64,000 nucleotides of DNA from Gloeopeniophorella convolvens (lineage: Eukaryota > Basidiomycota > Agaricomycetes > Russulales): contig WTXD01000023.1 in assembly GCA_022496205.1 (NCBI GenBank), forward strand, positions 124,001-188,000. The letters run 5' to 3'. The position numbers were made by a program, and so were the translations under genes. A model generated the notes under the pieces. That model did not search any database and was not told the DNA's origin. It saw only the letters and a list, made by a program, of their open reading frames with translations. Shown piece by piece: positions 1,836 to 50,660 of this stretch (positions are counted from its first letter, which is position 1; every line of letters starts with the position of its first letter).

Positions 1836-3967
1836 ATGATAATCCTTGATCTACTCGCACTCATATTCTTTGCATATGCCGTCCAGGTTCTCTTAGATCG
1901 TCGTAGGCGTGGAGGTTTGCCCTATCCGCCTGGCCCACGCCCACTGCCCATCCTAGGCAATGTCTTGGACATCCCAAAGGAGTCTTCGTGGTTCAAGTAT
2001 ACCGAGATGGGGCGCAAATATGGTACGATTCGCGTCATCATCGCCTGTTCAACTCCTTACTTCGAGTCGGTTGATAGGAGAGATCATGTCTTTCCAAGTC
2101 TTCGGGCAGATGATCATCGTTTTGAACTCTAGTAGGGTTGCCAAGGATCTGCTCGAGAAACGTGGAAATATCTACTCTGACCGCCCAGTCATCCCTTTCC
2201 TGGAGATGTGTGTATCAATCCTCCTTATGTCTAGTATGTCGCGCTGATATAACGAAGGCTGGACTGGGGCGTCTTCATACCCAATGCTCGCTATTCTGAC
2301 TGGTGGCGCCAGTCGCGCAAGATCCTCGATCGTGGCCTTGGTGGGGGTGCAGCGTCAAAGTATCGCCCAATGCAACATGCACGAGTGCGTGTGCTTTTAG
2401 GACGCCTGTTGAATCATCCGGAGAACGTGGATTCTCTCGTTGAACTGTCAGAGCCTTCACTGCGAGATGCTACCCCGACGCTTACCCATGCATTTCAGAC
2501 TTCAAGGAGAACTCATCCTTGCGATGACGTATGGTTATGAAGTCAAAGGGGAAGACGACAGGAAAGTCACCGTCTCAAGAGATGCACTTGGGTTTGGATC
2601 TAGAACGGCCCTTCCCGGAGCCTTACTTGTCAATCACCTCCCTATCTGTTCGTTGATGCATGGCCCTCGCGCTACCGGATCTTCCTTGACGCTTTATTGC
2701 AGTGCGTCATATTCCAGAAAAGCTATCCTGGTTCAGCTATAAGCCGCTCGCCCGTTTCGGTCGGGACCTTTGGCATGAAGTCATGGAATCTCCTATACAG
2801 ATCGTGAAAGACTCGATGGTCAGTCCGCCATCGCAAGTATTGTATCTCAACTGAAGGCGCTGTGCAGGAAAATGGCTCTGCAGTTCACTCACTTGCTCTT
2901 GAAAACCTGCAAAATGCGGAGAAGATGAATAGCACGGAGCGTGCAAAGGCAGAATCGGTTATCGTACCCACCATGGGATCGATGTACGCAGGTGCGTGCT
3001 GGGGCCGATTGCCTCGCCCACGCTAATCGAGAGAACGTCTATTAGCTGGGGTCGATACGGTACGACATCAAGCTCTCGATCGCTTAAGAGATGCTCACTC
3101 TGGGCTCTAGACAACATCAGCCTTATTGACATTCCTTCTGGCAATGATATTGCACCCGGATGTTCAGGTGAAAGCCCAAGCAGAGCTTGATTCTGTGGTC
3201 GGGCGCGACCGACTGCCAACATTTGAAGACCGTCCGCGTTTGCCGTACATCGATGCACTATGCCGCGAGGTGCTCCGGTGGAAGGTTGTAACGCCACTCG
3301 GTGAGTCCAACCCCAACGCCTGTGTTGCCCGAGGAAGGTTCTGACGACCAGGGTGATAGCCGTTCCCCATGCGACAACAGAAGATAACGTGTATGAAGGC
3401 TTCTTCATCCCGAAAGGTACGCTTCTTGTCTCGGCAGTAGTCCTGACGATCAGCTAGTTGACCGCACTGCAAGGTGTTATGATACTTGCAAACGTATGGT
3501 AGGTGATGATCCATGACTGGCAGATTTGAACGGGCTGACGATCGAGGGCATACAGGGCTATCCTACAGGATCCGATCACCTATCCAGAGCCGAGTGTTTT
3601 CAAACCCGAGCGTTTCCTTACGTCGGACGGAAACGTGCGCGACGATCCTACCCTATCTGCGGCCTTCGGATTTGGCAAGCGGATCTGCCCCGGACGCCAC
3701 TTCGTCGACGCCACGCTGTTTATTGCTGTCGCGTCCATGCTGTCAGTCTTCCGTATGGAAAAGAAGCGTGACGCCGAAGGAAATGCGATTCCCATCGAGT
3801 GCTCATACTCAGGATCGGTCGTAAGGTATGTTCGGGCGATGTCAAATCCTGCGCATAGGACGTTAAGCAACCACCTTGATAGCTCCCCGAGCAAATTTCC
3901 GTGCTCTATAGTTCCTAGAGACGCAAGAGCAGCCGAACTTATCTCCATAGACATCATTAGTAGCTGA
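1836..3967 (+). CDS. Cytochrome P450 monooxygenase (CYP64-clan type), P450-1
   Basis: Microsomal heme-thiolate monooxygenase, closest in kind to fungal O-methylsterigmatocystin oxidoreductase-like P450s; the substrate cannot be read from sequence. The start at 1836 was chosen because it gives a short N-terminal membrane anchor followed by a basic patch (RRRR) and the proline hinge YPPGP. The pieces then follow in order: GEIMSFQVFGQ exon, C-helix with WWRQSR, F-G region, the I-helix motif AGVDT, the ExxR motif in CREVLRW, the PERF motif and the heme signature FGFGKRICPGRH, with the ligand Cys codon at 3686-3688. About 12 exons are separated by short introns. The I-helix motif is carried by a 14-nt microexon (3046-3059). 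All pieces keep frame, so the gene appears intact, at about 500 residues. Family (CYP620, CYP5144, CYP5359 or other) is not assignable here. Confidence 0.9.
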
Positions 3968-4367: not shown

Positions 4368-6599
4368 ATGACTGTAACAGCACTAGCCCTTGGCTTTCTC
4401 ATATTCTCTGTCGTTTTCTTGTCTCGAGCTGCTGGCGAGCGCTACCCACGCGGACCAAGTAGACAACCACTACCTCCCGGCCCAAGGCCCCTTCCCATTC
4501 TTGGGAATGTATTCGATATTCCCAATCTCTTCTGCTGGGTGATGTATGCTAACTGGGCAAATAAATATGGCAGGTGTGGTCTAAGCTACTCCCTGAATAT
4601 GCCTCAATACCATCATGGTTTAGGCGACGTCATATCCCTCCAAGTCATGGGGAAGGTTATCATAGTTCTCAATTCATACAAAGCGGCAAAAGATCTGCTG
4701 GAGAAGCGCGGCGATGTTTACTCGGACCGCCCTGCCATTCCAATATATGAGATGTGAGTTTCGGGCTTTGATGTCTTCACAGCTGCACCAGAATGACGAT
4801 TCCATGGTATCCAGGATGCGGTGGGAGTGGTTCTTCCCATCGGCTCGGTACGCAGAGCCATGGCGCATTGGCAGGAGAATGCTCGACCGGAGCCTGCGCC
4901 CCACATCCATCGTCAATTACCGTCCCATGCTAGAAGCTCGGACACACGTGTTTCTTTCGCGGCTCCTCGCTCAGCCAGAACAGTTCCAGCTAGTAGCTCA
5001 GCGGTGTGTGGAATCTCGATGTCATCCGCTGCTTGACCCAAGTCTGACAGACATGCTTAAACAGCTTGCAGGGCGAATTGATTATGTCCCTTGTCTATGC
5101 GTATGAAGTGAAAGGGGAAGATGACCCCATGCTGCTGAAAGCGAAGGAGATGACGGAGATCGGAAGTGCATCAACCCTCCCAGGAGCGTTGCTTGTGAAC
5201 GTCCTTCCTTTTCGTGAGTATGTGTCCTTGTGCTACTGGTCCACATTGTAAGGACGTGCTGCAGTCAAACACATCCCAGCATGGCTACCCTGGGTCAGCT
5301 ACAAGCCGTTCGCTCGCAGGGGTTACGAGGTGGGGCGGGACGTCGTTCGTGTTACATTCAGGTGGATCAAAGATCGTATGGTAGGTAAAGCTTGGCTTGA
5401 ATTGGCATTATGTACTGACGGCCTTGGCGCAGGAAGACGGAACGGCACAGCCTTCACTAACTCTGGAATGTCTACGAGAGGCCGAGCAACTACCGGCCGG
5501 ACACGACAGAGACATTCAAGAGACATTTATTGCAAATACTATGGGGTCGATGTTCTCTTGTACGAGTGCATCTTTCCGTCCCCCATCGTGTTTCGACTGA
5601 GTGACCGGCACCTATTTTGTAGCTGGGGCTGATACCGTAAGCGAGCACATCCAACACTACAGACTCAGAAAACTGACCTTACTGCCAGACAGTTTCTACC
5701 TTGGAATCACTCTTTTTGATGCTTTCTCTATACCCAGAAGTGCAGGCGCGTGCGCAGGCGGAGCTCGACTCAATTACCAAGGGAGAACGGTTGCCAAACT
5801 TCGATGATCAACCGCGCTTGCCATACATCAACGCGATTTGCATTGAGTTATTGCGATGGCGTCTCGTTCTCCCATCTGGTGCCGTTCTACAAGTTGCCGC
5901 AATGTTTGATGGTCAAATTGACCGAGCGACGCCTCCCCAACAGGTTTCCCCCATGCAACAACGGAGGACGACACATACAACGGCTACTTCATCCCTAAAG
6001 GTGAAGAGCACGCGGGTTTCCGAAGCACTGTATGACCTATTCTTCGGTGTTCCCAGGTTCCATCATCATCCCGAATGCATGGTCAGCCTGTTTTCCTGTC
6101 AAATCTCCTTCACTGAACTAATCGCGAGCAGGGCGATTTTGCATGATCCAGAGAGATACCCAGATCCAGAGACCTTCAAGCCCGAGCGCTATCTGAACAC
6201 GGACGGCGCCTTTGTGGACGACCCGGTGGTAGCAGTAGCGTTTGGCTTCGGGAAGAGGTGAGTCTGGGCCACATCGTCTCGTCGGGTTCGGCGGTACGAT
6301 GGCGTCCAATTAGGATATGCCCCGGTAGGCACTTCGTCAATGCAACGGTCTTTATCGTGGTCTCGTCTCTGTTGGCATCATCCAACGTCACCAAGGCTCT
6401 TGACAAGCACGGACGGGAAATTCCCGTTGAGCCGATCGATACACACTCTGGTGAACTGGTTACGTATGTGCTTCCTTCTCTACTGAGGGACGTGAGGCTC
6501 ATCCAACTCTGCAGACGTCCTTTACCATTCGCGTGCGTTGCAAGACCTCGAGATCAGCGAGCTCGAGACCTTGTGTTAGCTAGCTGCTTAGCAGAATAG
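4368..6599 (+). CDS. Cytochrome P450 monooxygenase (CYP64-clan type), P450-2
   Basis: ER-anchored P450. It starts with a hydrophobic anchor and LPPGPRPLPILGN, and continues with GDVISLQVMGK, the C-helix WRIGRR, the I-helix GADT, ExxR as ELLR in CIELLRWR, PERY and FGFGKRICPGRHF. The I-helix motif is on a 14-nt microexon (5623-5636). Unlike most neighbours, an intron (6258-6313, 56 bp) splits the heme signature between GKR and ICPG; the Cys codon is 6318-6320. That intron is shared with the P450s at 57.1-59.3 and 60.2-62.5 kb, suggesting these belong to one subfamily. The last exon begins after a short intron near 6464 and ends at the stop 6597-6599. No lesion was found. It lies 0.4 kb downstream of P450-1 in the same direction. 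Substrate unknown. Confidence 0.9.
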
Positions 6600-10404: not shown

Positions 10405-12530
10405 TTATGCTGAGGTAGTCGTATCAATCAATTCTGCAGCCTTCTTATCTCGGGGAACTATGGCAAATGGAAATGGGGTAGGGTGGCTGCTCAAGCAATC
10501 AGCTAATCAAGTATGAAAGAGATGCCTTGAGCGACGTTACCTGACGATGGAACTCGTTTGGGAAACATTGAAAGGAATCTCTTCTCCACAAGCATCATGC
10601 TGCTTCTCGACGCTGAACACCGAAAGCAACGACGCGATGACCATGAACACTATTGCGTCGACGTGGTGCCTGCCAGGACAAATCCGCTTGCCATAACCAA
10701 AGGCTACTTTGAGAACGGCGTCGTTGCGCAAGGTTCCATTGGAATGAAGGAAGCGCTCGGGCTTGAAAGCATCCGGCTCTGGGAACAGCTTAGGATCACG
10801 AAGGATGCCCCTGAACTCAGCTTTCAGTAACCCGACAATAGTGTATATGCGTCGTAATCGCTCACCATGTGTTCCCGATGACGATAGCGTCTTGAGGGAG
10901 CATTAGCATCGAGGATGTCGCCAATTAGAACATCGGATCACACCTTTCGGAATGAAGAAGCCCTCGTAGATATCGTCCTGCGATGCTCGGTGCGGAATGG
11001 CTAATAATGCAGAGGGTCAACCAGCATTCTCCGTGGTACAGAGAAGGCTTACACAATGGCGTCACAACCTTCCATCGGAGAGCTTCTTTGCAAAGCGCAT
11101 CGACATAAGGCATCCTGGGGCGATCGCCGAATGTTGGAAGTCGCTCTCCGCCGGTCACGAGGTCAATCTCTTCCTGGGCCTTCTTTTGTACGTCGGGGTG
11201 CAGCAGAACAGCCAGCACTGCATTCAGTATAGCAGCACCTGTCTGCGAGGGGACACAGAGTATAAGAATCGAACAGCATTCAGTAACAAGCCTAGTCGGA
11301 CTCACGGTGTCAACGCCAGCTAGCCCGAGGGTTCAGAACAGCGTTCAATGGTTAGAGAAGCCATGGCTTACGTGCGTAGGTGGAACCCAGCGCTTGGGCA
11401 ATGATGCTCTCTGCCTTGTCTCTTTCCGATTCTTTCAGCTCCTCCGCCTCTTGAAGATGCTCGAGAGCCATTGAGGGAAGCGCTGTCCCCATTCTCTGCA
11501 AAGGCTCAACAATGTCCACGTCAAATCCGTGGATTACCAACCATGTTCTCCTTCACAAACTGAATGGGAGTAGTCATAACTTCCTGCCACATGTCGTGTC
11601 CAAGCCGGGCTAGAGGCTTATAGCTAATCCATGGAACCCAGGCCGGGATGTGTCGGACTGCACAGGACTGTCAAGACAGAGACGGACAGAAACAGAGGGC
11701 AACGCACGAAAAGGTAAATGGTTCACGAGTAATGCTCCCGGGAGAGCAGATGACGCCGCGAGTTCATTCATCGCCTTGGAGACAGAGACGATCCGATCCC
11801 CGTGACCCTTCAACTCGTATCCGTACGTCATACCCATGATGAGCTCGCTCTGAAGGCTGAAGCAAACATCGTCAGTGTGAATCGGAGAAGGATGAGAGAG
11901 CTCTGCGTACAGTTCCACATGTGCCCGTAGATCTTCAGGCGTCGCGAGCATGCGACCCAGGAACGCAGCAATTCTCCTTTCTTGTAGAGGATGATACTGC
12001 CCCAGTGCAGCTGGGCGCATGCTGCGCTCGAGCAGCCTACGCTCCTGTTTCCACGTCTCCCCATATGGTGCGCCGGGCACGAACGTTTCCCACCCCATCC
12101 TAGGCGTAAGCGTGGTCAGCGTCAGTGCGACCAGCGGTGATATAAAAACTTACATTTCTCCGATAGGCAGTGCAGGACGGTCCGAATAGATGTCCCCGCG
12201 TTTCTCCAACAGGTCCTTCGCGGCTTTCATGGAATTCAGAACGATGATGGTCTGCCCGAAGACGCGGAAAGATGTGATCTCCCCTAGCTCGAGTCTCAAA
12301 GAAGGCGTCACAAATGTAGGCATACGTTGCTCACCATACTGGTCCGCAACTTCCGTGTACTTGACCCAAGAAAAGTCCTTTGGGATGTCGAAGAGGTTGC
12401 CTACGAGGGGCAGAGGCGGCGGTCCCGGAGGATAGGGAAGTCTTCTGCGTTTGTGCTGGTCATGAAGCGCTCTGAGAATAAATACGAGCACAAGTAGAGC
12501 CAGTCCATCAAGCGCATGAAGAAAAGCCAT
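10405..12530 (-). CDS. Cytochrome P450 monooxygenase (CYP64-clan type), P450-3
   Basis: Intact-looking ER P450. The ATG at 12530 starts the membrane anchor, followed by RRRLPYPPGPPPLPLVGN. Further pieces are ITSFRVFGQTIIVLNS, C-helix WKQERR, YGYELKGHGDRI, the I-helix AGVDT on a 14-nt microexon (11306-11319), ExxR as EALR in CKEALRWK, PERF, and the heme signature FGYGKRICPGRHHVD with the Cys codon at 10678-10680 (minus strand). The C-terminal exon reads HPTPFPFAIVPRDKKAAELI and stops at 10405-10407. The proton-delivery motif has Val where many P450s have Ala (AGVDT), as in P450-1. It faces tail-on to the USO1 promoter. Substrate unknown. Confidence 0.9.
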
Positions 12531-13525: not shown

Positions 13526-15664
13526 TTAGCGTGCCAACACTTCAGCAGCAAGCAAACCCTCCGCCTTCCCGTCTCTGGGGAAAATGCAGTATGGGAACTG
13601 TGCTGGGCGACTGTGACAGCCTTGGTCAGCCTCGAGGAATATCCCGCAAATGGGGGAGTGATAAGCGTACCGAACCACATCCAATGCGTAGGTGGGCTCG
13701 ACTGAGAGCAGATTCCCTTCAGAGTCTCGTTTTCTTTCGATGTTGAAAACCGAGAGCAGAGATGCGACGAGAATGAATAACGTTGTGTCGACGAAATGTC
13801 TCGCTGGGCAGATACGCTTTCCGAAGCCGAATGCTACTGAGGGTGTAGGATCGTCTCGCAGACTTCCGTTTGGGTTTAGAAAGCGTTCCGGCCTGAATTT
13901 TTGTGGCTCCGGATATACTCGTGGATCCTGGAGTAATGCCCTAAACAGTGTCAGATACGCTCAGGATAGAGTTTAAAAAGGCTCACCGGGTATTCCCAAT
14001 GATGATGGCGCCTTGAAAATATCAGGATGGCCTCCGCCACGAACGACTCCGTGTTGTGAGGACATACCTTTCGGGATGAAGTAACCTTCGTAGAGGTCAT
14101 CCTGAATTGTAGCGTGAGGAACCGCTGAAGTTCATCAACAAATCGGCTCTTAGAAGGTAGCCATCCGGGCGGAAAGAGCTCACCGAGGGGTGCGACAGGG
14201 TGCCACCGGAGCACTTCTTTGCAGATTGCGTCGGTGTAGGGTAATGACGGGCGGTCCTCGAAGGTCGGTAGTCGCTCACGTGCGGTTACGGAGTCGAGCT
14301 CCGCTTGGGCTCGCCGTTGTACTTCAGGGTTTAGAAGGGCTGCCAATAAGAATGCCATGATAGCAGAGCCCGTCTTTCATGAAGTCTATCAATTGTCAAT
14401 GTCGAGAAATACGGGAAACAGCGCGTACTGTGTCGGCTCCAGCTGGAACAATGTTAGCAGAGGGCACTACTGCGATTAGGGGTGCCAATACCTGAATACA
14501 TAGATCCTAGACCATGTATAAGGAGTTCTTCTGCCTTCACGCGCTCTGAGGCATCTAACTTTTGCAGTTCCTGCAGATTTTGGAGTGCAAGCGAAGGTTG
14601 AGCATCGCCTGTCACCTTTTGTGAATGTGTGACGAACGATTCGAATAAGCGCAGAAATCTACGTACCATACCGCTTTTGACAAATTCAATCGGGGCATAC
14701 CGAACTTGTCGCCATATATCTTGACCTGCACGAGCAAGCGGCTTGTAGCTGATCCAGGAGAAGCTCTCTGGAATATGTCGCACTGTGGCACGCTACAGTC
14801 AGCGGCTACGGATGCCAACGACAATGGCAAAGTCTAGCTGACGAAAGGGAAGCTCATTCACGAGGAGTCTCCCGGCTTGGAGCGCTGGAAGCCCGATTCT
14901 GTTCATCTCCTGAGCAACCAACAGCTTCGGGTCATCGTTCCCTCGGACTTCATATCCATATATCATCGTTAATATGAGCTCCCCCTGTAGACTGCCGTGG
15001 GTGAGGAAGGTGTCAAGCTTCAGTTCCAAAAACAATGTTGTACTGACAGGTCTATGTGTGCTTCAAATTCCTCCGGGCGCTCTAGAATCCGATTTAGGAG
15101 CACACGTGTCCGGGTCTGTTGCATATGTCTGTACTTCTGGATCTCCCCTGGGCGCAGGCCACGTTCCACAAAGTTGCGTGTCATATGGAACTTCTCACCA
15201 AACCGCGTTGCCGTCAGATGCAGGTCCCACCCCATCCTAGGGACTATCAGCACGCAAAAAGGAGCAAGGGGACAAAACAAGTACATCTCGAACATCGTAT
15301 TGACAGGTCTGTCGGAGTAGATGCTGCCACGTTTCTCGAACAGGTCCTTGACTACTTTGACTGAGTTCAAGATGACGATAACTTTCCCGAATACTCGCAG
15401 ACATATGATATCGCCTGCAGTTCCAGGCGTGAGTTTGCATGAATAAGCGAAGCAGGACTCCGCACCATATTGCTGTCCATATTCAGCATACTTGAGCCAA
15501 GGAGTCTCTTTCGGAACGTCTAATAGGTTGCCAACCACAGGCAAACGTCGCGGTCCAGGAGGGTAGGGCACGCCACCTCGTCTGCGGTAGTCATGGAGAG
15601 CCCTTAGGGCAACGAGCAATCCAAGAGCTACAAGGAAGTCGAGCAAAGTTGACGAATGGAGCAT
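13526..15664 (-). CDS. Cytochrome P450, duplicate copy A with altered heme signature, P450-4
   Basis: P450 of the same architecture as its neighbours. It is a recent duplicate of the gene at 18101-20252; their third exons differ at 6 of 63 residues. The ATG at 15664 (MLHSSTLLDF) is shared by both copies; an upstream in-frame ATG at 15712 is less likely. Motifs: VPYPPGPRRLPVVGN, I-helix AGADT on a 14-nt microexon (14429-14442), ExxR in CKEVLRW, and PERF. Three features are unusual: the heme signature reads FGFGKRICPARHF, with Ala (codon 13802-13804) in place of the last Gly of FxxGxRxCxG; the C-helix WRxxR is FHMTR, so Trp is lost; and the C-terminus is RPAQFPYCIFPRD. The frame is open throughout, stop at 13526-13528. 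It may have shifted redox or substrate properties; this is inference. Confidence 0.88.
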
Positions 15665-18100: not shown

Positions 18101-20252
18101 CTAGCGTGCCAACACTTCAGCAGCAAGCAAATCTTCCGCCTCCCCGTCTCTGGGGACAATGCGGTATGGAAACTGCGCTGGGCAGCTGTGACGGCCTTGG
18201 TCAGCCTCAAGGAACATCTCGCAACCGGGACAGTGATAGGCGCACCGGATTACATCTAATGCATAGGTGGGCTCGACTGGGAGCAGATTCCCTTCAGAGT
18301 CTCGTTTTCTTTCGATGTTGAAAACCGAGAGCAGAGATGCGACGAGAATGAATAACGTTGTATCGACGAAATGCCTCGCTGGGCAGATGCGCTTTCCGAA
18401 ACCAAATGCGACTGAGAGCGTAGGATCGTCTCGCAGACTTCCATCTAGATTTAGAAAGCGTTCCGGCTTGAATTGCTGTGGCTCCGGATATACTCGTGGA
18501 TCCTGAAGTAATGCCCTAAGCGGGGTCAGGTCTGGTCAGGCACGCTCAGGATAGAGATTCAAAAATGCTCACCAGGTATTCCCAATGATGATAGCGCCTT
18601 GGAAAGATCAGGATGACCTCTACCATGAAGGGTTCTGTGTCGTAAAGACGTACCTTTTGGGATGAAGTAACCTTCGTAGACGGCATCCTGAACTGTAGCA
18701 TGAGGAACCGCTAAAGTCCATCAATAACTCGGCTCTCAGCCACTGTCCGCGCGGAAAGAGCTCACCGAGGGGTGTGACAGGCTGCCACCGCAGCACTTCC
18801 TTGCAGACTGCGTCGGTGTAGGGCAGTAATGGGCGGTCTTCGAAGGTCGGTAGCCGCTCGCGTGCGGTTACGGAATCGAGCTCTGCTTGGGCTTCCCGTT
18901 GTACTGCAGGATTCAGAAGCACCGCAAGCAGAAATGTCATGATAGCAGAGCCCGTCTTTCATAAATTCTATCAACCGACAATGTCGAGAGGTACGGGGAA
19001 CAGCGCGTACTGATTCTGCTCCAGCTGGAACAATGTTAGCAGAGGACATTACAGCGATTAGGGATGGGCTGATACCTGAATACATAGACCCCAGTCCATG
19101 TGCAATGAGTTCTTCTGCCTCCACGCGCTCTGAAATATCTAGCTTCTGCAGTTCATGCAGATTTTGGAGTGCTAGCGAAGGTTGAGCATCGCCTGTCACC
19201 TTTTGTGAATGTGTGACGAACAATTCGAATAAGCACAGAAATCTACGTACCATGCCGCTTTTGACAAATTCAATCGGAGCATACCGAACCTGCCGCCATA
19301 TGTCCTGACCTGCACGAGCAAGCGGCTTGTAGCTGATCCAGGAGAGGCTCTCTGGAATATATCGCACTGTGGCACGCTACAGTCAGCGGCTATGAAGGCC
19401 AATGATAATGGCGAAGTCTGACTGACGAAAGGAAAGCTCATTCACGAGGAGTTTCCCATGTTGGAGCGCTGGAAGCCCGATTCTGTTCATCTCCTGGGCA
19501 GCCCAAAGCTTCGGGTCATCGTTCCCTCGGACTTCATATCCATATGTCATCGTTAATATGAGCTCCCCCTGTAGACTGCTGTGGGTGAGGAAGGTGTCAA
19601 GCTTCAGTTCCAAAAACAATGTTGTACTGACAGGTCTATGTGCGCTTCAAACTCCTCCGGGCGCTCTAGAATCCGATTTAGGAGCACACATGTCCGGGTC
19701 TGTTGCATGTGCTTGTACTTCTGAATCTCCCCTGGACGCAGGCCACGCTCCACAAAGTTGCGTGTCATATGGAACTTCTCACCGAACCGCGTTACTATCA
19801 GCTGTAGGTCCCACTCCATCCTGGGGGTCATCAGCACGCAGAAAGGAGCAGTGACAAAACAAGTACATTTCGAACATCGTATTGGCGGGTCTGTCGGAGT
19901 AGATGCCGCTACGTTTCTCGAACAGGTCCTTGACTGCTTTGGCTGAGTTCAAGATGACGATAACCTTCCCGAACACTCGTAGGCATATGATATCGCCTGT
20001 GGTTCCACACGTGAGTTTGCATGAATAAGAATAAGCGAAGCAGGACTCCGCACCATATTGCTGTCCATATTCAGCATACTTGAGCCAAGGAGTCTCTTTC
20101 GGGATGTCCAACAGGTTACCAACCACAGGCAAACATCGCGGTCCAGGAGGATAGGGTAGGCCACCTCGTCTGCGGTAGTCATGGAGAGCCCTTAGGGCAA
20201 CGAGCAATCCAAGAGCTACAAGGAAGTCGAGCAAAGTTGACGAATGGAGCAT
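18101..20252 (-). CDS. Cytochrome P450, duplicate copy B with Glu-Ser I-helix, P450-5
   Basis: Near-identical sister of P450-4 with the same exon plan. The ATG at 20252 (MLHSSTLLDF) was chosen by match to copy A; a further in-frame ATG lies at 20261. It has LPYPPGPRCLPVVGN, C-helix FHMTR (Trp absent, as in copy A), ExxR in CKEVLRW and heme signature FGFGKRICPARHF with Ala (18377-18379) in place of Gly. The 14-nt I-helix microexon (19011-19024) differs from copy A at three bases, turning AGADT into AGAES: Asp becomes Glu and the oxygen-activating Thr becomes Ser. Both are conservative, so activity may persist. The frame is open to the TAG stop at 18101-18103. Duplication plus motif change suggests functional divergence or early decay. 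Confidence 0.87.
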
Positions 20253-24491: not shown

Positions 24492-26655
24492 TCATGCACT
24501 GAACCCGTTCGCCAAGACCAGATCCTCAGCTAGCTTACCCCGGGGCGTGATAGAGCACTCAAATGTATCCGGGGACCTGGGGCCAACCGGTCAGGGAATC
24601 ATTTCCTGAAGGAATCCAAGGCCGACTTACACGATGATGCCATTCTGTCCTTCCACAGCGACCCTTATAGGGATATCGTGGCCATACTTGTCTTTTGCCT
24701 TTGTCAAGTTGAACACGGACAAGACTGATGCAACGACGATGAAGAGCGTAGCGTCCACAAGATATCGCCCCGGACAGATGCGCCTGCCGACACCGAAAGC
24801 GAAGGAAAGAGCTGGATCATCGCGCACAGAACCATCCTCGTTGAGGAACCGCTCGGGACTGAAGGTATCAGGGTCTGGATAAGCTTCCGGGTCGTGCAAG
24901 ATTGCCCTGGAGTTCAGTAAGGAGACGGAGACGATAGGTTCTCTGTGTACCAACGACTGACCAAGTGTTGGGAATTACGATGGAACCTAGTATCAGAGTT
25001 GTGAGGACGTGCACTATGCATGGGTTCGTTGGAGCCTCACCTTTCGGAATAAAGTAGCCCCGATATACGTCGTCCTCGCTCAATGCATGAGGAAAGGCTA
25101 GGTGCGCCGTTCGTGAGATGCCTCCAAAACACCTCACTATGATGCGATAGAGGCTCGTACCGATCGGCGTGATCATTTGCCACCTCATCAACTCTTTGCA
25201 TATCGCTTCGACATATGGAAGACGGGGCTTGTCATCAAATGTCGGTAATCTGTCTCTAGATGTGACAGCGTCGAGCTCTGCTTGCGCCCGACTCTGCACA
25301 TCTGGGTTGAGAACGAGCGCGAGGAAAAACCATAGTAGTGCAGACACTGTCTGGAATAACACTTGAATTAGGTGGAGCATAGACGTAGTCGATGCATACC
25401 GTGTCGGAACCGGCTGGTTGTACAATCAATGCTTCGACACGGACAGAGAAGTTACTAACGTACCAACAAACATGGATCCCAGTGCGGCTGTTACAGTCAT
25501 CTCTTGCTTCTGGCGGTCCGTGGGGGCAAGTTGATCTAGATCATGCATACATTCGCTGGCCAATGAGGAGACGGCAGTACCCTCTTTCTGAGAACTCGTC
25601 AGGTGACCTAGAAGCGGGACCTTGTTCATGACACACCATGGCGGTTTTCACGAAATTGAAAGGTTCATTCCTACTTCTTTTCCCGACATCTCTGCCCTTG
25701 CGCGCCAGGGCCCCATAATTAAACCAAGGAACCCAAGCCGGTATATGTCTCACTGTGGGCGTTCGAACGCTCGTGGTGAGCAACGTAAAGAATCGCCCTT
25801 GTTAGACGTGCACGTACAGAATGGGAGTGTGTTCACTAACACCGCCCCAGGTACTGAAACCCGAGAGAGGATATCAAGCTGCTCGATCGGAGCGAGTATA
25901 ATCTCGTCATCGAGCGTTTTCAAGTCATATCCATAGGTAAGTGCCATGATGATCCTTCCCTGCAGACTGCTCCAGCCGTCAGCGGCGTCGTGTTCCTACC
26001 AGAAGAAAGAACCACTTACAGCTGGGCATGCTCCTTGAAATTCTCCGGGGACTCGAGTAGTTGACCGAGAAAAGAGCGTATCTTCTCTTGTATCATCTGG
26101 TGATATGATGCGATTGCGCCCGACTTGAGGCTACGGTCGAGTATCCTTCGTCCTTCTCTCCAAGGTTCTGCCCTGTTGAGGCTGTGGAGTGGCCAGTCCA
26201 ACTCCATCCTACACATGAAGACAAAGCACCTGTCACAGACTGGGTTATATTGAACCGAGAAGTTTACGTACATTTCTTGGATCGGAAGTTGGGCGCGGTC
26301 AGAGTAGATATCTCCCCGCTTCTCAAGTAAGTCCTTCGTAGCCTGGGCTGAGCCTAGGACCACGATAGTCTGTCCGAGCATGTGCAGAGACATGACATCG
26401 CCTAGTGGAACTGTATTGAACGGAGGTAGATTCTACTCAGGGTTGACACCCACCGTACTTCTTAGACATGTTCGCATACGATGCCCAAGCTGTATGCTTA
26501 GGAACGTCAAACAGGTTGCCAACGATCGGCCATGATCGTGGCCCCGGGGGATAAGGCAGTCCTCGTCGCCTTCTGTAGTCTCGAAAGGCGGCGAGAAGAT
26601 AAGCGAAGAGTAGAAATACACAATAGTCGACTACTGAAATAGTGAGAGACATCAT
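24492..26655 (-). CDS. Cytochrome P450 monooxygenase (CYP64-clan type), P450-6
   Basis: Intact-looking ER P450. The start at 26655 (two adjacent Met codons, 26655 and 26652) precedes a hydrophobic anchor, RRRRGLPYPPGPRSWPIVGN, DVMSLHMLGQ and the C-helix WREGRR. The I-helix motif reads AGSDT and lies on a 14-nt microexon (25400-25413). ExxR is ELMR in CKELMRWQ. The heme signature is FGVGRRICPGRYLVD, with Tyr in place of the usual His after Gly-Arg; the Cys codon is 24774-24776 (minus strand). The last exon reads SPDTFECSITPRGKLAEDLV and stops at 24492-24494. All exons keep frame. It is more divergent from the others in the F-G region (DLKTLDDEIILAP), so it probably represents a separate subfamily. 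Substrate unknown. Confidence 0.88.
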
Positions 26656-27835: not shown

Positions 27836-29975
27836 CTAACGAGCCAGCACATCAGCAGCGATCAAGTCTGCTGCCTTCTTGTCTCTTGGAACAACGGAGA
27901 ATGGGAACGGGCTCGGACGACTATCATGCGTAAGGTAAGCTTGTCGTCCGCTCTGTACGGACATGGGAGAGGAATACCTGATGACCCCGTTCGTGAACGT
28001 CGGCTCAAACGGGATCTCGTTGCCGTCGGCATCTTTCTTCTTGCTGATCTTGAAAGCGGAGAGGATAGACGCGACTGTGATGAAGAGTGTAGCGTCTGCG
28101 AAGTGGCGCCCCGGGCAGATGCGCTTTCCGAGCCCGAACGCCATGGTCAGCATTGGATCATCGCGAACGCTCCCATCTGGTTCCAGGAAGCGCTCCGGCC
28201 GGAACCGGTCTGGCTCGGGGTATAGCTCTGGGTCGTGGAGGATCGCCCTGGCGCAGTTCAGCGATGTTTGATTGATGAGAAGACCGAGCCCCACCATGTG
28301 TTGGATATCACGACGGCCCCTTGTGACGGTGCTCCGTCAGCTTTTCGCTACTGCATCATCAGGTGAAATTCATACCTTCTGGAATGAAGAAACCCTCGTA
28401 TACATCATCTTTGATCGATGAATGCGGGACCGCTGCACGTGCAACGATGAGCATTCGTAGGACAGCTTTTAGGAGAGACAGACCTAAGGGCGTGACAGGC
28501 CTCCATCGCAGTACCTCCTTGCAAATGGCGTCGGTGTAGGGCAACAATGTGCGGTCGTCAAACGTAGGGAGACGTTCAAGCCCTGTCACAGCGTCGATCT
28601 CTGCCTGGGCCTTCTTCTGCACATCTGGGTGCAGGAGTGCCGCAAGGATGAATACCATTGTAGCCGATCCCGTCTGATGCGCCACGATTGACTCAGAGAG
28701 TGCTAACATAATGAAAAGAACGAAAAACGCACAGTATCTGCTGCCGCTGTACGGAACGATATTAGTGGATGTCGAGAGCAACCCGCAATTGCAACTGCCT
28801 ACCAGAATACATGGACGCGAGAGAATACATTAGCACGTGCTCAGCTTTCTTTCGCTCAGACATGCTCAAGTCTTGTAGCTGCTCCAGATTCTCGAGTGCA
28901 AGCGAGGGACGCGCTGTGCCATCCGCCTACAAAATCCAAGTTGGGTCCAGGCGTCAGACAGACGAATTTACAGCATACGCACGATAGTATCCTTGACGAA
29001 CTGCATTGGAGAGCGTACCGCTTCCACCCACAGGTCCCTTCCGACACGCGCGAGAGGCTTGTAACTGATCCAGGAGAGCCATCCAGGGATATGGCGCACT
29101 GCGGAAGACGTTAGACTCATATTCAACCAGAAAGCCATCATGCGCACAGAAAGGCAGCTCGTTCACCAGCAACGCTCCTGGAAGCGTCCTTTCGATTCCG
29201 ATATGATGTATTTCTTGCGCGAGCGCGACACGTTCATCGTTGGGTCCCTTGACCTCGTATCCGTACGTCATAGCCAGACTCAATTCACCTTGCATTCTGT
29301 AGAGGAACAATTGAGTAGGGATTACAAGGGGCGAGGCAGGTGGGAGAGCACCTGTCGACATAATTCTCAAGCTCGTCCGGGCGCTCTAACACACGGCTCA
29401 GCAGCACGCGCACGCGTGCTTGCTGCATGGAGCGATACTTAGTCACGGCACCCGGGCGTAAGCCGCGATCGACCAGTTTGCGTGCCAGACGCCAATCCTC
29501 GCCATAGTGCGTTATTGGTAGATTCAAATCCCAATCCATCCTAGGGTCCATCGATGAGCCTGAATCGGAAAACAGGAGAGTGGGCCTACTTACATCTCGT
29601 AAAAGGGCACGCGGGGCCGGTCGGAATAGACGCCGCCGCGCTTCTCGAGCAAGTCCTTGGCGACTTGAGCCGAGTTCAAGACGACAATCATCTTCCCGAA
29701 AACACTGAAAGATATCATGTTGCCTAATGAAAGTTGAGAGAAGAGGAACAAGTCTGTGGAACGAAATTCGCACCGTATTTCTTGCCCATCTCGGTGTACG
29801 CCAACCAGGAGTGCTCCTTTGGAAGATCAAGCAAATTCCCTATGACAGGCAGTGCATCTGGACCTGGAGGATAACGGAGGCCTCCACGCCTGCGGCGATT
29901 GCGTATATACGAGAAAGCATAGAAAGAGATCGATAGAATGAACAAGTCTAGCACTGTAGCTGCGGGGGAGAACAT
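27836..29975 (-). CDS. Cytochrome P450 monooxygenase (CYP64-clan type), P450-7
   Basis: Intact-looking ER P450. The ATG at 29975 (MFSPAATVLDLF) is preferred to 30002 because the TATA-like box at 30014-30020 lies close by. It has [30 protein letters not shown]-helix WRLARKLVDRGLRPG, YGYEVKGPNDERV, the I-helix motif AAADT (14-nt microexon 28733-28746; Gly of the usual AGADT is Ala), ExxR in CKEVLRW, and FGLGKRICPGRHFAD with the Cys codon at 28115-28117 (minus strand). A short intron interrupts the codon region after GVIR, and the last exon PSPFPFSVVPRDKKAADLI runs to the stop at 27836. It closes the first P450 array before the tRNA. Confidence 0.9.
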
Positions 29976-41263: not shown

Positions 41264-43393
41264 ATGCCTTCGTTCGCGCTTGTTTTCGATTTCTTCGCCC
41301 TCTTGCTATGCCTGGTCGTCGTACAAGCCATCCGTGACCGTCGGAGGCGTCAAGGCCTCCCTTACCCTCCAGGCCCATCCCCACTGCCTTTGATAGGCAA
41401 TATGCTTGACATTCCGAAGAAGTTTTCTTGGCTTACATATGCGGAGATGGGGAAGAAATACGGTACGGAACTGGCATCGCCGTTACAAATTACATGCTAA
41501 CGCTCGCCAGCAGGGGACGTCCTATCTCTTAGGGCATTTGGGCATATGGTAGTCGTATTGAACTCAGCAAAAGCAGCCAAAGAGCTACTAGAAAAGCGTG
41601 GAGCGATATACTCCGACAGACCCGTCATTCCCTTCTATGACATGTATGTGATGAGTTTCTCGATTAACGATCTACTTTGACAAAATCCAGGATGGAGATG
41701 GACCTGAACCTCCCAGTTACGAGATATGGGGAGGACTGGCGCTTAGCACGCAGACTTGTCGATCGCGGTCTCCGTGCCGGCGCTGTAGTCAAATATCGAC
41801 CCATGCAACAAACAAGGACACGCGTGCTTCTCAGTCGAGTGCTCGAGCAACCTGACAATTTTGAGGAGCATGTCGAAACGTAAGTAGAACGTTCTTGCGA
41901 GCATCCCCGATTCATACTCTCAAATTGTTGTCTTTCTTCCGGCAGCATGCAAGGCGAGCTTATCTTAGCGATGACCTATGGCTACAAAGTGAAAGGCCGC
42001 GCCGACGAGAGACTTGTCTTGGCCAAATTGCTGAACGATATAGGCGCTACAAGATTATTACCAGGCGGTCTGCTCGTCAACGAGCTACCCTTCCGTGAGC
42101 GCGCATCCGGTTATATATTCTGGTTGTGCTTACACTCAATACCATACACAGTGCGCCACATTCCGGAGTGGCTCCCTTGGATCAGCTACAAGCCTCTAGC
42201 GCGTGAGGGGCGGGAGCTTTGGCAAGAGGCTGCAAAGTCCCCGATTCGATTCGTCAGAGAGTCTACAGTAAGCATTTGGTGACTTCGGTGAGACACACTG
42301 TGACCCCGTGGCGCATGCAGGTGAAGGGCACGGCACAGCCCTCCCTTGCTTTCGAAAACTTACAGGAAGCAGAGAAATTGAGCGACTCAGAGCGACAGAG
42401 AGCTGAACACGTGCTTACGTTTGCCTTGGCGTCTATGTATACGGGTACGTAATCATTCACTACGCATTTCATCCTCCTCGTATTCACCGAAGCGTTCAGC
42501 GGGAGCTGACACGGTATACTGATATACGGTTGTCACGAGCTTTTCTCACACATGCTACTCTAGACTGGAATAGCTATAAAGAACTTCCTCCTCGCAGCAT
42601 TGCTGCACCCTAATGTGCAGAGAAGAGCTCAGGCGGAGCTCGACGTCGTCACTGGGCGTCAGCGACTTCCGACCTTCGAAGATCGCCCACTGTTACCATA
42701 CACCGATGCGATCTGCAGAGAAGTGCTGCGTTGGAAGGCTGTTACCCCGCTAGGTATATACAGTTGTCCCCATGAGAGCGACATACGACGTTTACCATGA
42801 ATAGCGGTTCCTCACGCATCCACCCAAGATGATATATATGAAGGGTTCTTCATACCAAAGGGTACGAGTGGTGCCTACATGTCCTTGATGTTCCAAATCG
42901 TGTATTTTCTGAAGGCGCCGTAATCGTCGCGAATACCTGGTAAGTTTTTTGAGATAGAGGTCACCTGTCGCCACTGACGCACCCCAGGGCCATCCTTCGA
43001 GACCCATCCGTATACCCGGAACCAGACGAATTCAAGCCCGAACGCTTCTTGAACTCAGACGGGACCGTGCGCGACGATCCTATGCAGTCGGTGGTATTTG
43101 GATATGGGAAACGCATCTGCCCGGGGAGACACTTCGTCGACGGGACGCTTTTCATTACTGTTGCATCTCTGCTCTCTGTCTTCAACATTGAGCGAAAGAA
43201 GGACCAGAAGGGCGAAGATATTGCATTTGAGCCTAAGCATACAGACGGTATTCTCAGGTACTTCCATCGAGATCTTCGGTGAGATTGATGGACTGATCTT
43301 CTCCATAGCCACCCTGCCCCATTTCCCTATATCATCGCCCCCAGGGACAAGAGGGCACATGAGCTGGTGACTGCGGAAGCATTGGCGCGTTAG
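41264..43393 (+). CDS. Cytochrome P450 monooxygenase (CYP64-clan type), P450-8
   Basis: Intact-looking ER P450 and the only complete plus-strand P450 in the right half. It has an N-terminal anchor, RRRRQGLPYPPGPSPLPLIG, GDVLSLRAFGH, C-helix WRLARRLVDRGLRAG, YGYKVKGRADERL, the I-helix AGADT (14-nt microexon 42500-42513), ExxR in CREVLRW, PERF, and FGYGKRICPGRHFVDG with Cys codon 43118-43120. The last exon reads PAPFPYIIAPRDKRAHELVT and stops at 43391-43393. Its C-helix and heme region resemble P450-7 (WRLARKLVDRGLRPG), so the two may be close relatives now on opposite strands on either side of the tRNA-LSM6 island. Substrate unknown. Confidence 0.9.
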
Positions 43394-46994: not shown

Positions 46995-48540
46995 ATGCCC
47001 ACTTTACATTCCTCTGGACCCGTGCTTGACCTGCTTGTTCTCTCGCTCTCACACATGCCGTCTGGTCTATATGCGATCATCAGAGACGAAGAGGCTCGCT
47101 TTACCCTCCCGGCCCCCGACCACTGCCAGTAATAGATAGCCTCTGGGATCCTCCTAAAGAGCTGCCATGGTTCGAATGCACTGAATCAGAAAAGAAATTC
47201 GGTGCGCCTTTCGGCCCCGTCAGCATATATCAGTCGCTGACAGGTGGAATCCGTCTCAGCGTCTTCGGGAAGGTAATCATTGACCTGAACTCAACGAGAG
47301 TACCAAAAGAATCGTTCGAGAAGTGCGGCAGCATTCGTTTCTATCTCCCTGCCATTCCGTTCTACGAAACGTACGTGACCACTCCTCACTCCAGTCTTCC
47401 ATGACGAGCTTATGTAGGCACTTCCGGTACGGAAGCAAGCTTGGCCGTGGATGTACTGTAATGTGGACCGGCGAAGGCTAGCGCCTAGTGCGCAGGCTAG
47501 GGGCGATGACACACGGGTATGATGTGAAAGGACGGGAAGGTGGAAAGGTCGTGCTCTCCAAGGAGCTGCACAGGATGGGAATTGAGAAGTCCCTGCCGAG
47601 CGCTCTCCTCGTCAGCGGAATTCCATTCCGTGGGCCCGCGTCCGACTCTGCGATAAGCCTGATGAGGATATGCGGTCCGTCATATCCCAGGGTGTCTCCC
47701 TTGGCACGTTACTGAAGATATCTCTGCCATGGAGCCGCAAACTCTCCTCAGATGTGATGCGTGAGGGAGTCCATCGTACGCCCAAAGCTCGCGGGCCTGG
47801 CAATCAAATTGAAGCATTTCATCCCAAGTAGAAGAGGCAACTCCCCTCGCCCGCACCAGAGAACTTGCTGGACCCAGAACAATTGCGTTATCCTGAGCGC
47901 ACCCTCACATAAAGCCCTTGGGTCCAGTGTGCGTGACGTTGATATGTGTTTCGCGCTTCGATCGGCCTGCTATACACCATATCTTCCAGCAGTGTCGGAT
48001 GCTGTTTATGTCTGCTCGGCGTGTGGCTTCATGTACAGTTCCTCAACTGTAACTCCCTGTAGACTGCAACTGCAATCATGAACCTTCTGCCTACATCACC
48101 GCAGAACCCGGAGGTTCAAAGGAAGACGCAGGCCGAGATTTATGCAGCGACGGGGCGTGAGTGGCTCCCCATTTTTGAAGATCACACCTTATTACCGTTG
48201 AAAACGGCGAAGCCGTCTGCAGGCGTAGTTTCCGCGTGAAGTTGCCGCATGAAGTTGGGCTCTTTGCCCTTGCTTTGTCCCGTTACATTCCGCTGATGTG
48301 CCAGTGTCACGGTACGCTACAACCTCGTGATCTCAGTGCCACGTGCTGATCCTTCGCGCTATCGCGTGCCTCCCATTCCACCATATACGGATGCGGTCTA
48401 CAAACAGGTGCTACGATAGAAAAGCGTCATTCCTTTTGGTGTCATGTCTCTCAGTCACGACGCATGGTCATCGACATACTAAGGTATACCTCATGCAACG
48501 TTCCAGGACCATGCCTCTCGAGACAATGTCAAGCCTGCCC
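46995..48540 (+). pseudogene. Degenerate, truncated cytochrome P450
   Basis: Pieces of a CYP64-clan P450 in the right order but broken. The N-terminal anchor begins at 46995, then a frame change occurs before LYPPGPRPLPVIDSLWD (about 47085-47100). VFGKVIIDLNSTRV and IPFYET follow. The C-helix reads GEG*RLVRRL with TAG (47479-47481) where Trp is expected. It is then fused directly to MTHGYDVKGREGGKVV, skipping the usual roughly 60 codons and an intron. Further on are NPEVQRKTQAEIYAATGREW and a ruined ExxR (QVLR*), where Glu is Gln and the following Trp is TAG (48417-48419). A trace of the PHATFQD segment is the last recognisable piece (about 48490). The heme-binding half is absent. It runs tail to tail into P450-9. 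Clearly non-functional. Confidence 0.88.
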
Positions 48541-48595: not shown

Positions 48596-50660
48596 CTACT
48601 CGTTCGCTGTCGCGCGCACAAGTGCCGCCGCCGTCTCGGATCGAGGGGTTATCTTGCACCTGAACGACTCCGGGTATCTGCCCATGCCACCATTAGAATC
48701 AAGACAAGGCCTACGGGAAGACAGCACGCACGAAACGATCCCCGATGCATAGATCTCGCGCGGGGGATCATCCGCATAGGGCTCAATGTTGAAGGAGGAA
48801 AGCACCGCCGAGATCGCCGCCCACACGCTCGCGCGGGCCATGAAGCGCCCGGGGCACTCGCGCCGCCCGAAGCCGAACGCAGGCTCCGGGAACGGAGGTG
48901 CGTCAGGGGCAAGCCAGCGTTCGGGACGAAAGCGCGATGGCTCGGGGAATGCCACAGGATCGTGCATCATCGCCCTGCGCGACGCATTAGCACTGATCGG
49001 CTGAAGGTACTGGCGAGGCGTACCATGCGTTTCCAATGACGATGGAACCTGCAGGGATGAGATAGCCCTCGTAGATGTCATCTTGCGTGAGGCGGTGCGG
49101 TATTGCTGTGGACCGAGCAGAATAAGCGAGCGATGAGGAAGACGGCAAGATGCGGGGACGCACCGAGCGGAACAACAGGGTGCCAGCGCAGCACCTCCTT
49201 CAGCACCGCGCCAACATAGGGCAACGCAGGTTCGTCAGAGAAGTCTGGAAGCCGTGTGCTACCGACGACGGCATCAATTTCTGCCTGCGCTTTGCGCTGC
49301 GCCTCGGGGTTAAGTGCCATCGCAAGGAAGAACGTCTGTAGCGCGGAGACAGTCTGTAGAACACGATGAGATGAATGGTATCGCGCTCTTACGCAAGCAT
49401 ATACATACTGTGTCCGCTCCACCAAGATATATATTCCCCGGGAGGAATTTTGCAAGCATGACTTCCTCTGCAGTCGAATCTTCGCTCAGGTGCGTTGTCA
49501 TTGAAGCGGCAACTGAGGGAGCAGCGGTCCCATCGGCCTGACGAGGACGAGCGTCAACATCACTGCGAAAGGATTGACCCGAGACACGCACCAGGCCCGC
49601 CTGCACGGCCGCGTAGGGATCCTCCAACATGCCCGTAACGTGCGGAAGCCATCTGCGTGCCTCGCGCTTGAATGCTGCTCCCGGGAACCAGTCGGGCATG
49701 TTGATCACTGCGCACGTTGATATCGCGGCTGCGTGAAAGTAGATATAGGACTCACACCACGGAATCACGTCAAATAGCCCTCCACCCATACTGGACGCCA
49801 GTGCGACTGCGTGCAAAGATTTCTCCGCAGTCGCGACGTATGGATCGCTGTGCGGTTGCACGTCGATGCCATATGCGATTGCGAGTATGACCTGCCCCGC
49901 CATACTGCAAAGACTCGGTGTCAGCACACAATAACATTGAAGCAGCGCACTGCAGAGTAGAGACGTACTGCCTCAGGTGCTGTGCGAAATCATCAGGCGT
50001 GGTAAGCAAATTGCGTAACAACCGACGCGTCGCGTGCAGTTCAAGTGAATGGTACGCGCGGGATGCGGTGGGATGGAAGTGACCGTGGAACGCACGGCGC
50101 AGGGCGCGCCACTTAGCCCCGTACGGATTGAATCCAAGGACCCAATCCAACTTGAGGCTGAACCATGGAGCGCGCGCTCAGTGGCGATGACGTGAGATAG
50201 GGCAGACGGGACTCACATGCGGTTAAGTGCGACGAGCGGCGGCCTGAAGGACTCGTACATCAGAAGGTGCGACATTCGGACCCCGCGGATCGCACCTGTC
50301 GGAATAAACAGAAGAGCGCTTGTCGAAGAGCTCGTTCGCGGCTTTCTCTGAGTTGACGACGACGATGTGCGTGCCAGCTGCGTCGACATGTACGATATCC
50401 GAGCCTGGTGACGCGGGATTCTGGACGGTGCGCTAGCAGCAACGCAGATGATTGGACGTACCATACTCGTCTGACCACTTCTTATATGTGATCCATTCGT
50501 CCCGGGAAGGCAGATCCAACAGGTTCCCAATTATGGGCCAGCGCTTGGGCCCCGGTGGATATGGTAGGTTCCTGCGCGTCCTGCGCGTCACATACAGGAG
50601 GACAGTGACGAAGAACGCTGCAGTGGGGATGAGGATATCAGACCGAGTGAGCATTGGCAT
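48596..50660 (-). CDS. Divergent cytochrome P450 monooxygenase, P450-9
   Basis: A P450 clearly different from the rest of the array. The ATG at 50660 opens an anchor, then [18 protein letters not shown] and [13 protein letters not shown]. Next come [19 protein letters not shown], an intron inside the Arg/Pro junction of [13 protein letters not shown], and the C-helix [14 protein letters not shown]. The I-helix GGADT lies in a normal exon, not on a 14-nt microexon. ExxR is in LKEVLRW, PERW replaces PERF, and the heme signature is [15 protein letters not shown] with the Cys codon at 48854-48856 (minus strand). The stop is at 48596. No lesion was seen. Fewer introns and the different C-helix point to another family within the same clan. 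Substrate unknown. Confidence 0.87.

What the first reader, a model, noticed from the sequence alone, without database searches (positions are those of the whole stretch)
3046..3059. A conserved 14-nt microexon encodes the P450 catalytic I-helix motif
In all ten loci of the main P450 lineage where this region is visible, the (A)GxDT oxygen-activation motif is carried by an exon of exactly 14 nt: 3046-3059, 5623-5636, 11306-11319, 14429-14442, 19011-19024, 25400-25413, 28733-28746, 42500-42513, 58082-58095 and 61200-61213. Each has an AG just before and a GT just after, and each completes an Ala or Ser codon begun in the previous exon. Because 14 is not a multiple of three, skipping it would both delete the catalytic motif and shift the frame, so splicing of this microexon could act as an on/off switch for enzyme activity. 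P450-9 lacks it.
Basis: partly seen in the sequence, partly recalled or inferred. Interest (0 to 1): 0.8.

Follow-up and report, generated by a model that had tools for sequence, protein, structure and literature searches.

The report
Inherited 14-base exon in fungal P450s
In a family of mushroom cytochrome P450 genes, the oxygen-activating motif sits on a real 14-base exon, but it looks like an old, routinely included piece of gene structure that gene-prediction software often gets wrong, not an on/off switch.

Summary
All ten 14-nt exons exist at the stated places, with a phase-1 intron before and a phase-0 intron after, and carry the I-helix motif. A decayed eleventh copy lies at 47990-48003. 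One detail is wrong: the exon at 11306-11319 completes a Pro codon.

The switch reading is not supported. Exons 2, 3, 4, 8, 9 and 10 have one length in all ten genes too. Flanking introns are not unusually conserved and donors are ordinary. Of 51 genes compared from the same genome (Gloeopeniophorella convolvens), 32 of a 40-gene clade have the exon; seven lack only the upstream intron, one lacks both. Of 41 ORFs on short, transcript-like contigs of relatives that reach the junction, 36 include the exon, 5 end in a retained flanking intron, none shows skipping.

I-helix microexons in basidiomycete P450s are already in print (PMC12940212). The useful residue is practical: 27 of 104 listed genome-derived protein models of relatives fail a motif test at this junction, many apparently by bypass or read-through. 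No RNA-seq was available; regulated retention remains open.

The parts
3046..3059 (+). 14-nt exon of P450 g1 (AGVDT); introns 2992-3045 and 3060-3110
5623..5636 (+). 14-nt exon of g2 (SGADT); introns 5560-5622 and 5637-5688
11306..11319 (-). 14-nt exon of g3 (PGVDT; completes a Pro codon); introns 11320-11371 and 11243-11305
14429..14442 (-). 14-nt exon of g4 (AGADT); introns 14443-14491 and 14374-14428
19011..19024 (-). 14-nt exon of g5 (AGAES: Asp to Glu and Thr to Ser); introns 19025-19075 and 18956-19010
25400..25413 (-). 14-nt exon of g6 (AGSDT); introns 25414-25463 and 25351-25399
28733..28746 (-). 14-nt exon of g7 (AAADT); introns 28747-28802 and 28674-28732
42500..42513 (+). 14-nt exon of g8 (AGADT); introns 42445-42499 and 42514-42563
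   Evidence: spliced product 100% identical to public protein P0001 over the query
58082..58095 (-). 14-nt exon of g10 (AGADT); introns 58096-58148 and 58032-58081
61200..61213 (-). 14-nt exon of g11 (AGADT); introns 61214-61270 and 61152-61199
47990..48003 (+). decayed 14-nt exon of a P450 pseudogene (AVSDA if the codon begins with G), AG before, GT after; next intron 48004-48062
   Evidence: placed by eye, not by the aligner
49409..49537 (-). g9: 129-nt exon with the motif GGADT uninterrupted (upstream intron absent); downstream phase-0 intron 49354-49408 kept
1836..3823 (+). g1 exons 1-11 as aligned (187,130,189,149,116,124,14,190,57,25,268 nt), the architecture shared by the ten genes; the end is where the alignment ends, not a set stop codon

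Best explanation
The 14-nt exon is a constitutive coding microexon. It exists because two old spliceosomal introns lie 14 nt apart: one in phase 1 inside the codon before the Gly (or Ala) of (A)GxDT, one in phase 0 after its Thr. The length is fixed because no indel is tolerated in the motif and both intron sites were inherited by a large clade of duplicated P450 genes. The exon is joined by ordinary splicing of two short introns (48-63 nt in the ten genes). Shown: the sites, phases, frame necessity and the family-wide pattern. Inferred: that inclusion is constitutive in this fungus, and that the genes with one intron lost it rather than never having it.
For: All ten genes share one architecture; exons 2, 3, 4, 7, 8, 9 and 10 have one length in all ten, exons 5 and 6 in nine of ten, exon 1 in eight of ten. 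Donors of the flanking introns score like the others (5.76 vs 5.78 bits, p=0.61). Flanking introns are no more alike between paralogues (I6 0.537, I7 0.523; all ten introns 0.510-0.545). Of 51 genes of the genome put on a tree, 32 have both introns, 7 only the downstream one, 1 neither, and 11 (a separate clade) an intron at -7 instead; on the best tree the seven fall in three places among genes with both. 36 of 41 short-contig ORFs of relatives reaching the junction read the motif in frame, 5 end in a flanking intron, 0 skip. In Schizophyllum commune exon skipping is 1% of annotated coding-region splicing events (PMC5034255, passages).
Against: Acceptors of the two flanking introns are slightly weaker (3.79 vs 4.68 bits, p=0.037, uncorrected). 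The same S. [quoted passage not shown] No RNA-seq of this fungus was available. That the short contigs are transcripts is inferred from long ORFs that cross the positions of introns known in this fungus. Direction of intron change is inferred; starred branches force only two, not three, changes for the seven genes, and L045 is a long branch at an unresolved fork.
Confidence: 0.85

Rival explanations
1. Regulated skipping of the microexon is an on/off switch: conditions decide whether exon 6 joins exon 7 or exon 8, and the skipped mRNA is frameshifted and dead.
For: Skipping would shift the frame in 32 of 32 genes examined, with an early stop seen in 28. A microexon acts as a switch in another fungus: Xlr2 in Trichoderma virens (PMC11121469, abstract). 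Doddapaneni 2005 proposed that microexons promote alternative splicing in P. chrysosporium P450s (PMC1184071, passages). S. commune junction counts include 1,527 skipping events inside coding regions (PMC5034255, passages).
Against: 0 of 41 transcript-like ORFs at the junction show skipping, although the second search used skipped products as its query. Skipping would need an intron of 113-129 nt where the introns of these ten genes are 46-68 nt. Relatives without the upstream intron keep the motif and cannot skip it as a separate exon.
Confidence: 0.04
2. Regulated or leaky retention of the two introns flanking the microexon lowers enzyme output: crowded splice sites around a 14-nt exon splice slowly, and retained forms are disrupted.
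For: Three short-contig ORFs end in the downstream intron and two in the upstream intron. Retention would be silent (multiple of three, no stop) in only 2 of 32 genes for the upstream and 3 of 32 for the downstream intron. Weaker acceptors. Retention is the commonest coding-region event in S. commune (PMC5034255, passages).
Against: Other ORFs of the same search end at about the positions of introns 4 and 5, so retention is not special to this place. Nothing shows regulation.
Confidence: 0.1
3. No microexon: the motif belongs to a longer exon or the genes are read otherwise.
For: Some public gene models read through it, e.g. P0022 of this fungus.
Against: Score falls in 10 of 10 genes when the exon is forbidden; transcript-like ORFs of relatives give the spliced reading; read-through meets a stop or a frame change in most genes.
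Confidence: 0.01

Closest known systems
8-nt microexon in the I-helix motif AGHETT of CYP5141A1, Phanerochaete chrysosporium (Nelson and Syed 2026, PMC12940212; part 1 of 3 of the text and passages seen)
   Same: A very short exon inside the same oxygen-binding motif of a basidiomycete P450; the authors state there are multiple I-helix microexons in that species and suggest they preserve the motif when introns fall within it
   Different: 8 nt not 14; from the codons printed, its introns sit 3 nt inside those here on both sides (my reading), so it is another pair of sites; one gene is spelled out there, 32 genes here
Microexons (2-10 aa) in nearly a third of the P. chrysosporium P450ome (Doddapaneni 2005, PMC1184071, passages)
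   Same: Basidiomycete P450 genes with many 45-55 nt introns and tiny exons; alternative splicing proposed
   Different: The passages seen do not tie microexons to helix I and give no 14-nt exon
13- and 15-bp exons of CYP63-type genes pb-1 and pb-3, Phlebia brevispora (PMC3292997, passages)
   Same: Tiny exons of equal length kept between paralogues, in genes for which cDNA and genomic DNA were cloned
   Different: Another P450 family; position relative to the I-helix not checked
Xlr2 microexon switch, Trichoderma virens (PMC11121469, abstract and outline)
   Same: A fungal microexon whose absence removes a functional part
   Different: A transcription factor, with both isoforms reported under different glucose levels; no skipped isoform found here
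1-nt exon of Fusarium CYP621A (PMC12940212)
   Same: Microexon inside a conserved P450 motif, needed to assemble the protein
   Different: PKG motif, ascomycete, confirmed by RNA reads

Membership tests
Cytochrome P450 (Pfam PF00067) | Whole-protein score above the curated cut-off | tested here: met
   spliced g8 236.6 bits and g9 237.5 bits against 22.8; the other window genes were not scanned singly
Cytochrome P450 (Pfam PF00067) | I-helix (A)GxDT, K-helix ExxR and heme loop FxxGxRxCxG in one reading frame after splicing | tested here: met
   g8 reads AGADT, EVLR and FGYGKRICPG; motif names as in PMC12940212 and recalled
Coding microexon of the basidiomycete P450 I-helix (PMC12940212) | Very short exon lying inside the I-helix motif, needed to assemble it | tested here: met
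Coding microexon of the basidiomycete P450 I-helix (PMC12940212) | Same intron positions as the published 8-nt case | tested here: not met
   introns at -2 and +12 from the Gly codon against about +1 and +9 as I read the printed codons; shared location, separate sites. This is not a defining feature of the class, only of that gene
Switch microexon (Xlr2-like) | Both included and skipped mRNAs exist | tested here: inconclusive
   0 skipped of 41 transcript-like ORFs; not RNA-seq, other species, and skipped mRNAs may be degraded
Switch microexon (Xlr2-like) | Ratio changes with condition | not testable with these tools
   no expression data

The most novel reading that the evidence does not exclude
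The two introns crowded around the 14-nt exon form a shared slow step. Their retention, not skipping of the exon, sets how much active P450 a whole tandem family makes, and it responds to growth conditions across dozens of genes at once.
Probability: 0.07. Interest if true: 0.6.

Novelty: new member of a known kind. Interest (0 to 1): 0.3.

Why it matters
The exon itself is ordinary gene anatomy, but it sits on the catalytic motif of a very large enzyme family of mushrooms, and 27 of the 104 listed genome-derived protein models of relatives fail a motif test exactly there. Searches for active-site variants, structure predictions and cloned coding sequences made from such models would be wrong at the oxygen-activation site. 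The absence of the upstream intron in several relatives also gives a natural comparison of genes with and without the microexon in one genome.

Tried and rejected
Special conservation of the 14-nt exon: rejected, most neighbours are as fixed. Weak donors inviting skipping: rejected. A first acceptor comparison (2.44 against 4.67 bits, p=2.9e-5) counted the first exon base, which the motif fixes; redone on intron bases only the difference shrinks to 3.79 against 4.68, p=0.037. Conserved intronic control elements: no excess identity, although this measures whole introns, not short motifs. Skipped isoforms: searched with a profile of seven hypothetical skip products, sized so that full-length proteins drop out; 55 proteins, none with the frameshifted tail on inspection. 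Conservation at DNA level in other fungi was not tested: the searchable genome collections hold prokaryotes, viruses and this one assembly. PMC3899305 (passages) holds gene-structure figures but no use of the word micro-exon; PMC8426240 (term look-up) holds no exon, intron or splice. CYP family name: not assigned. The solved-structure search gave only distant, mostly animal P450s and did not bear on splicing. Structure prediction was not run. One search was a script error, repeated. Automatic motif placement failed for L045 and L087; I set their states by hand from the exon lengths.

Full report
What is there. The window is a piece of contig C146 of a 36.68 Mb fungal assembly. The spliced product of one window gene (g8) is 100% identical over the query to a public protein of Gloeopeniophorella convolvens on a contig of 422,830 bases, the length of C146, so the organism is that Russulales mushroom. 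Ten P450 genes share one architecture; in g1 the exons are 187, 130, 189, 149, 116, 124, 14, 190, 57, 25 and 268 nt, and three of the ten (g2, g10, g11) split the last exon once more. Exon 7 is the 14-nt exon, at all ten cited places.

Is it real? Each exon has AG before and GT after, is entered in phase 1 and left in phase 0. With a different paralogue as query, forbidding its acceptor or donor costs 13 to 45 score units in 10 of 10 genes; in g5 the next-best model placed a 14-nt exon elsewhere. Shuffling the DNA between exons 6 and 8 (300 dinucleotide shuffles per gene) never reached the true score in any gene, and a 14-nt exon turned up in 0 to 6 of 300. The exact motif pattern has 9 window hits against 0.07 expected; a looser scan gives the ten plus two elsewhere. 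Two corrections: the exon at 11306-11319 completes a Pro codon, and g9 lacks only the upstream intron. A pseudogene at 47042-48437 keeps a decayed 14-nt exon at 47990-48003 between AG and GT, found by eye.

Is it specially conserved? No. Exons 2, 3, 4, 8, 9 and 10 also have one length in all ten genes; exons 5 and 6 differ in one gene each, exon 1 in two. Equal length is what inherited intron sites and an indel-free motif give. Most of these exons are not multiples of three, so the frameshift argument is not specific to exon 7. The introns beside it are no more alike between paralogues than the other eight. Donors are average; acceptors are slightly weaker (3.79 against 4.68 bits, uncorrected p=0.037).

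How is it spread? Part of the choice used a pattern that favours the 14-nt exon, so proportions are not unbiased. For the tree I dropped L047, L051, L061, L062, L065 and L066 (alleles or broken copies) and a second copy in L041 without a readable motif; loci under the score limit (among them L044, L054, L055, L056, L060) never entered. Of 51 genes, 32 have both introns (14-nt exon), 7 only the downstream intron, 1 neither, and 11, a fully supported separate clade, have an intron 7 nt before the Gly codon instead. On the best tree the seven fall in three places among genes with both; starred branches alone force two, and L045 is a long branch at an unresolved fork. Same position and phase in distant members favours one origin with later losses of the upstream intron; that direction is inference. 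In g9 and its relatives the motif is read without interruption, so the catalytic sequence does not need the microexon.

Is it spliced in, skipped or retained? There is no RNA-seq here. A substitute came from the protein collection. One search listed 120 of 1,729 relatives. Sixteen come from contigs under 6 kb, yet hold ORFs of about 510 to 550 residues that cross the positions of the introns known in this fungus, so they are very probably transcripts; 16 of 16 read the motif in frame. That list favours intact proteins, so I searched again with a profile of seven hypothetical exon-skipped products, sized so that full-length proteins are excluded. Fifty-five proteins came back, 39 of them from short contigs. 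Over both searches 55 short-contig ORFs were examined: 36 include the exon in frame; 3 end in the downstream intron (P0125, P0133, P0145); 2 end in the upstream intron (P0135, P0163); 14 end before the junction, several at about introns 4 or 5; none has the frameshifted tail of a skip. P0163 may carry more unspliced sequence. In G. convolvens, skipping would shift the frame in 32 of 32 genes (alleles left out): in 28 a stop follows after 16-40 residues, in 4 the frame stayed open to the end of the stretch aligned (g5 stops after 164). It would also need introns of 113-129 nt where the ten window genes use 46-68 nt.

What about public gene models? Of the 104 listed proteins from longer contigs, 77 show a normal motif region and 27 do not (Fisher p=0.021 against 16 of 16). 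Of the 27, P0042 has a plain substitution at normal spacing and P0091 lacks the exon-6 side, so not all are splicing errors; I judged the others by eye, and many look like bypass or read-through of the tiny exon. P0022, a G. convolvens gene, carries the downstream intron as extra residues compared with my model of L071, and P0121, on the haplotig copy of g2, bypasses the exon.

Mechanism, with weights. Constitutive inclusion of an inherited microexon, 0.85. Retention-based control of output, 0.10. A skipping switch, 0.04. Not an exon, 0.01.

What is known. Nelson and Syed (PMC12940212; part 1 of 3 of the text and passages) describe a 1-nt exon in Fusarium CYP621A, an 8-nt exon in the I-helix motif of P. 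chrysosporium CYP5141A1, and say there are multiple I-helix microexons there. Doddapaneni 2005 (PMC1184071; passages) reported microexons in nearly a third of that species' P450s and proposed alternative splicing. PMC3292997 (passages) gives 13- and 15-bp exons kept between two Phlebia P450 genes. PMC5034255 (passages) reports exon skipping as 1% of coding-region events in a mushroom, but also 1,527 skipping events inside coding regions when single junctions are counted, and P450s enriched among alternatively spliced genes. My searches (read as listings) did not show a description of this 14-nt exon, but they cover open-licence papers only, and a web page cited in PMC12940212 could hold it. 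The finding is a well-supported new member of a known kind.

Noticed in passing
P0022, P0101 (this fungus), P0121 (haplotig copy of g2) and others among P0001-P0175: Public P450 protein models often bypass or read through the 14-nt exon; 27 of 104 listed genome-derived models failed the motif test, not all for that reason.
   Followed up: partly
47042-48437 (+): A decayed P450 copy with recognisable exons and a remnant 14-nt exon.
   Followed up: partly
4570-4623: The aligner starts intron 1 of g2 with GC instead of GT (a possible GC-AG intron).
   Followed up: no
59196, 59237 and 61512 (-): The aligner needed frameshifts in exon 1 of g10 and exon 5 of g11; these may be inactive copies or assembly errors.
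   Followed up: no
19011-19024: g5 reads AGAES: both the acid and the alcohol residue of the motif are changed conservatively; L063 reads GVEST.
   Followed up: no
3474-3498 and homologous places: A second tiny exon of 25 nt, also of fixed length in all ten genes.
   Followed up: no
contig C163 (L061): A haplotig-like contig carries second copies of g1 and g2 with identical 14-nt exons.
   Followed up: partly
L039-L042, L046, L048-L050, L053: A separate P450 clade has a phase-2 intron 7 nt before the motif's Gly codon instead; introns near this motif sit at more than one site.
   Followed up: partly
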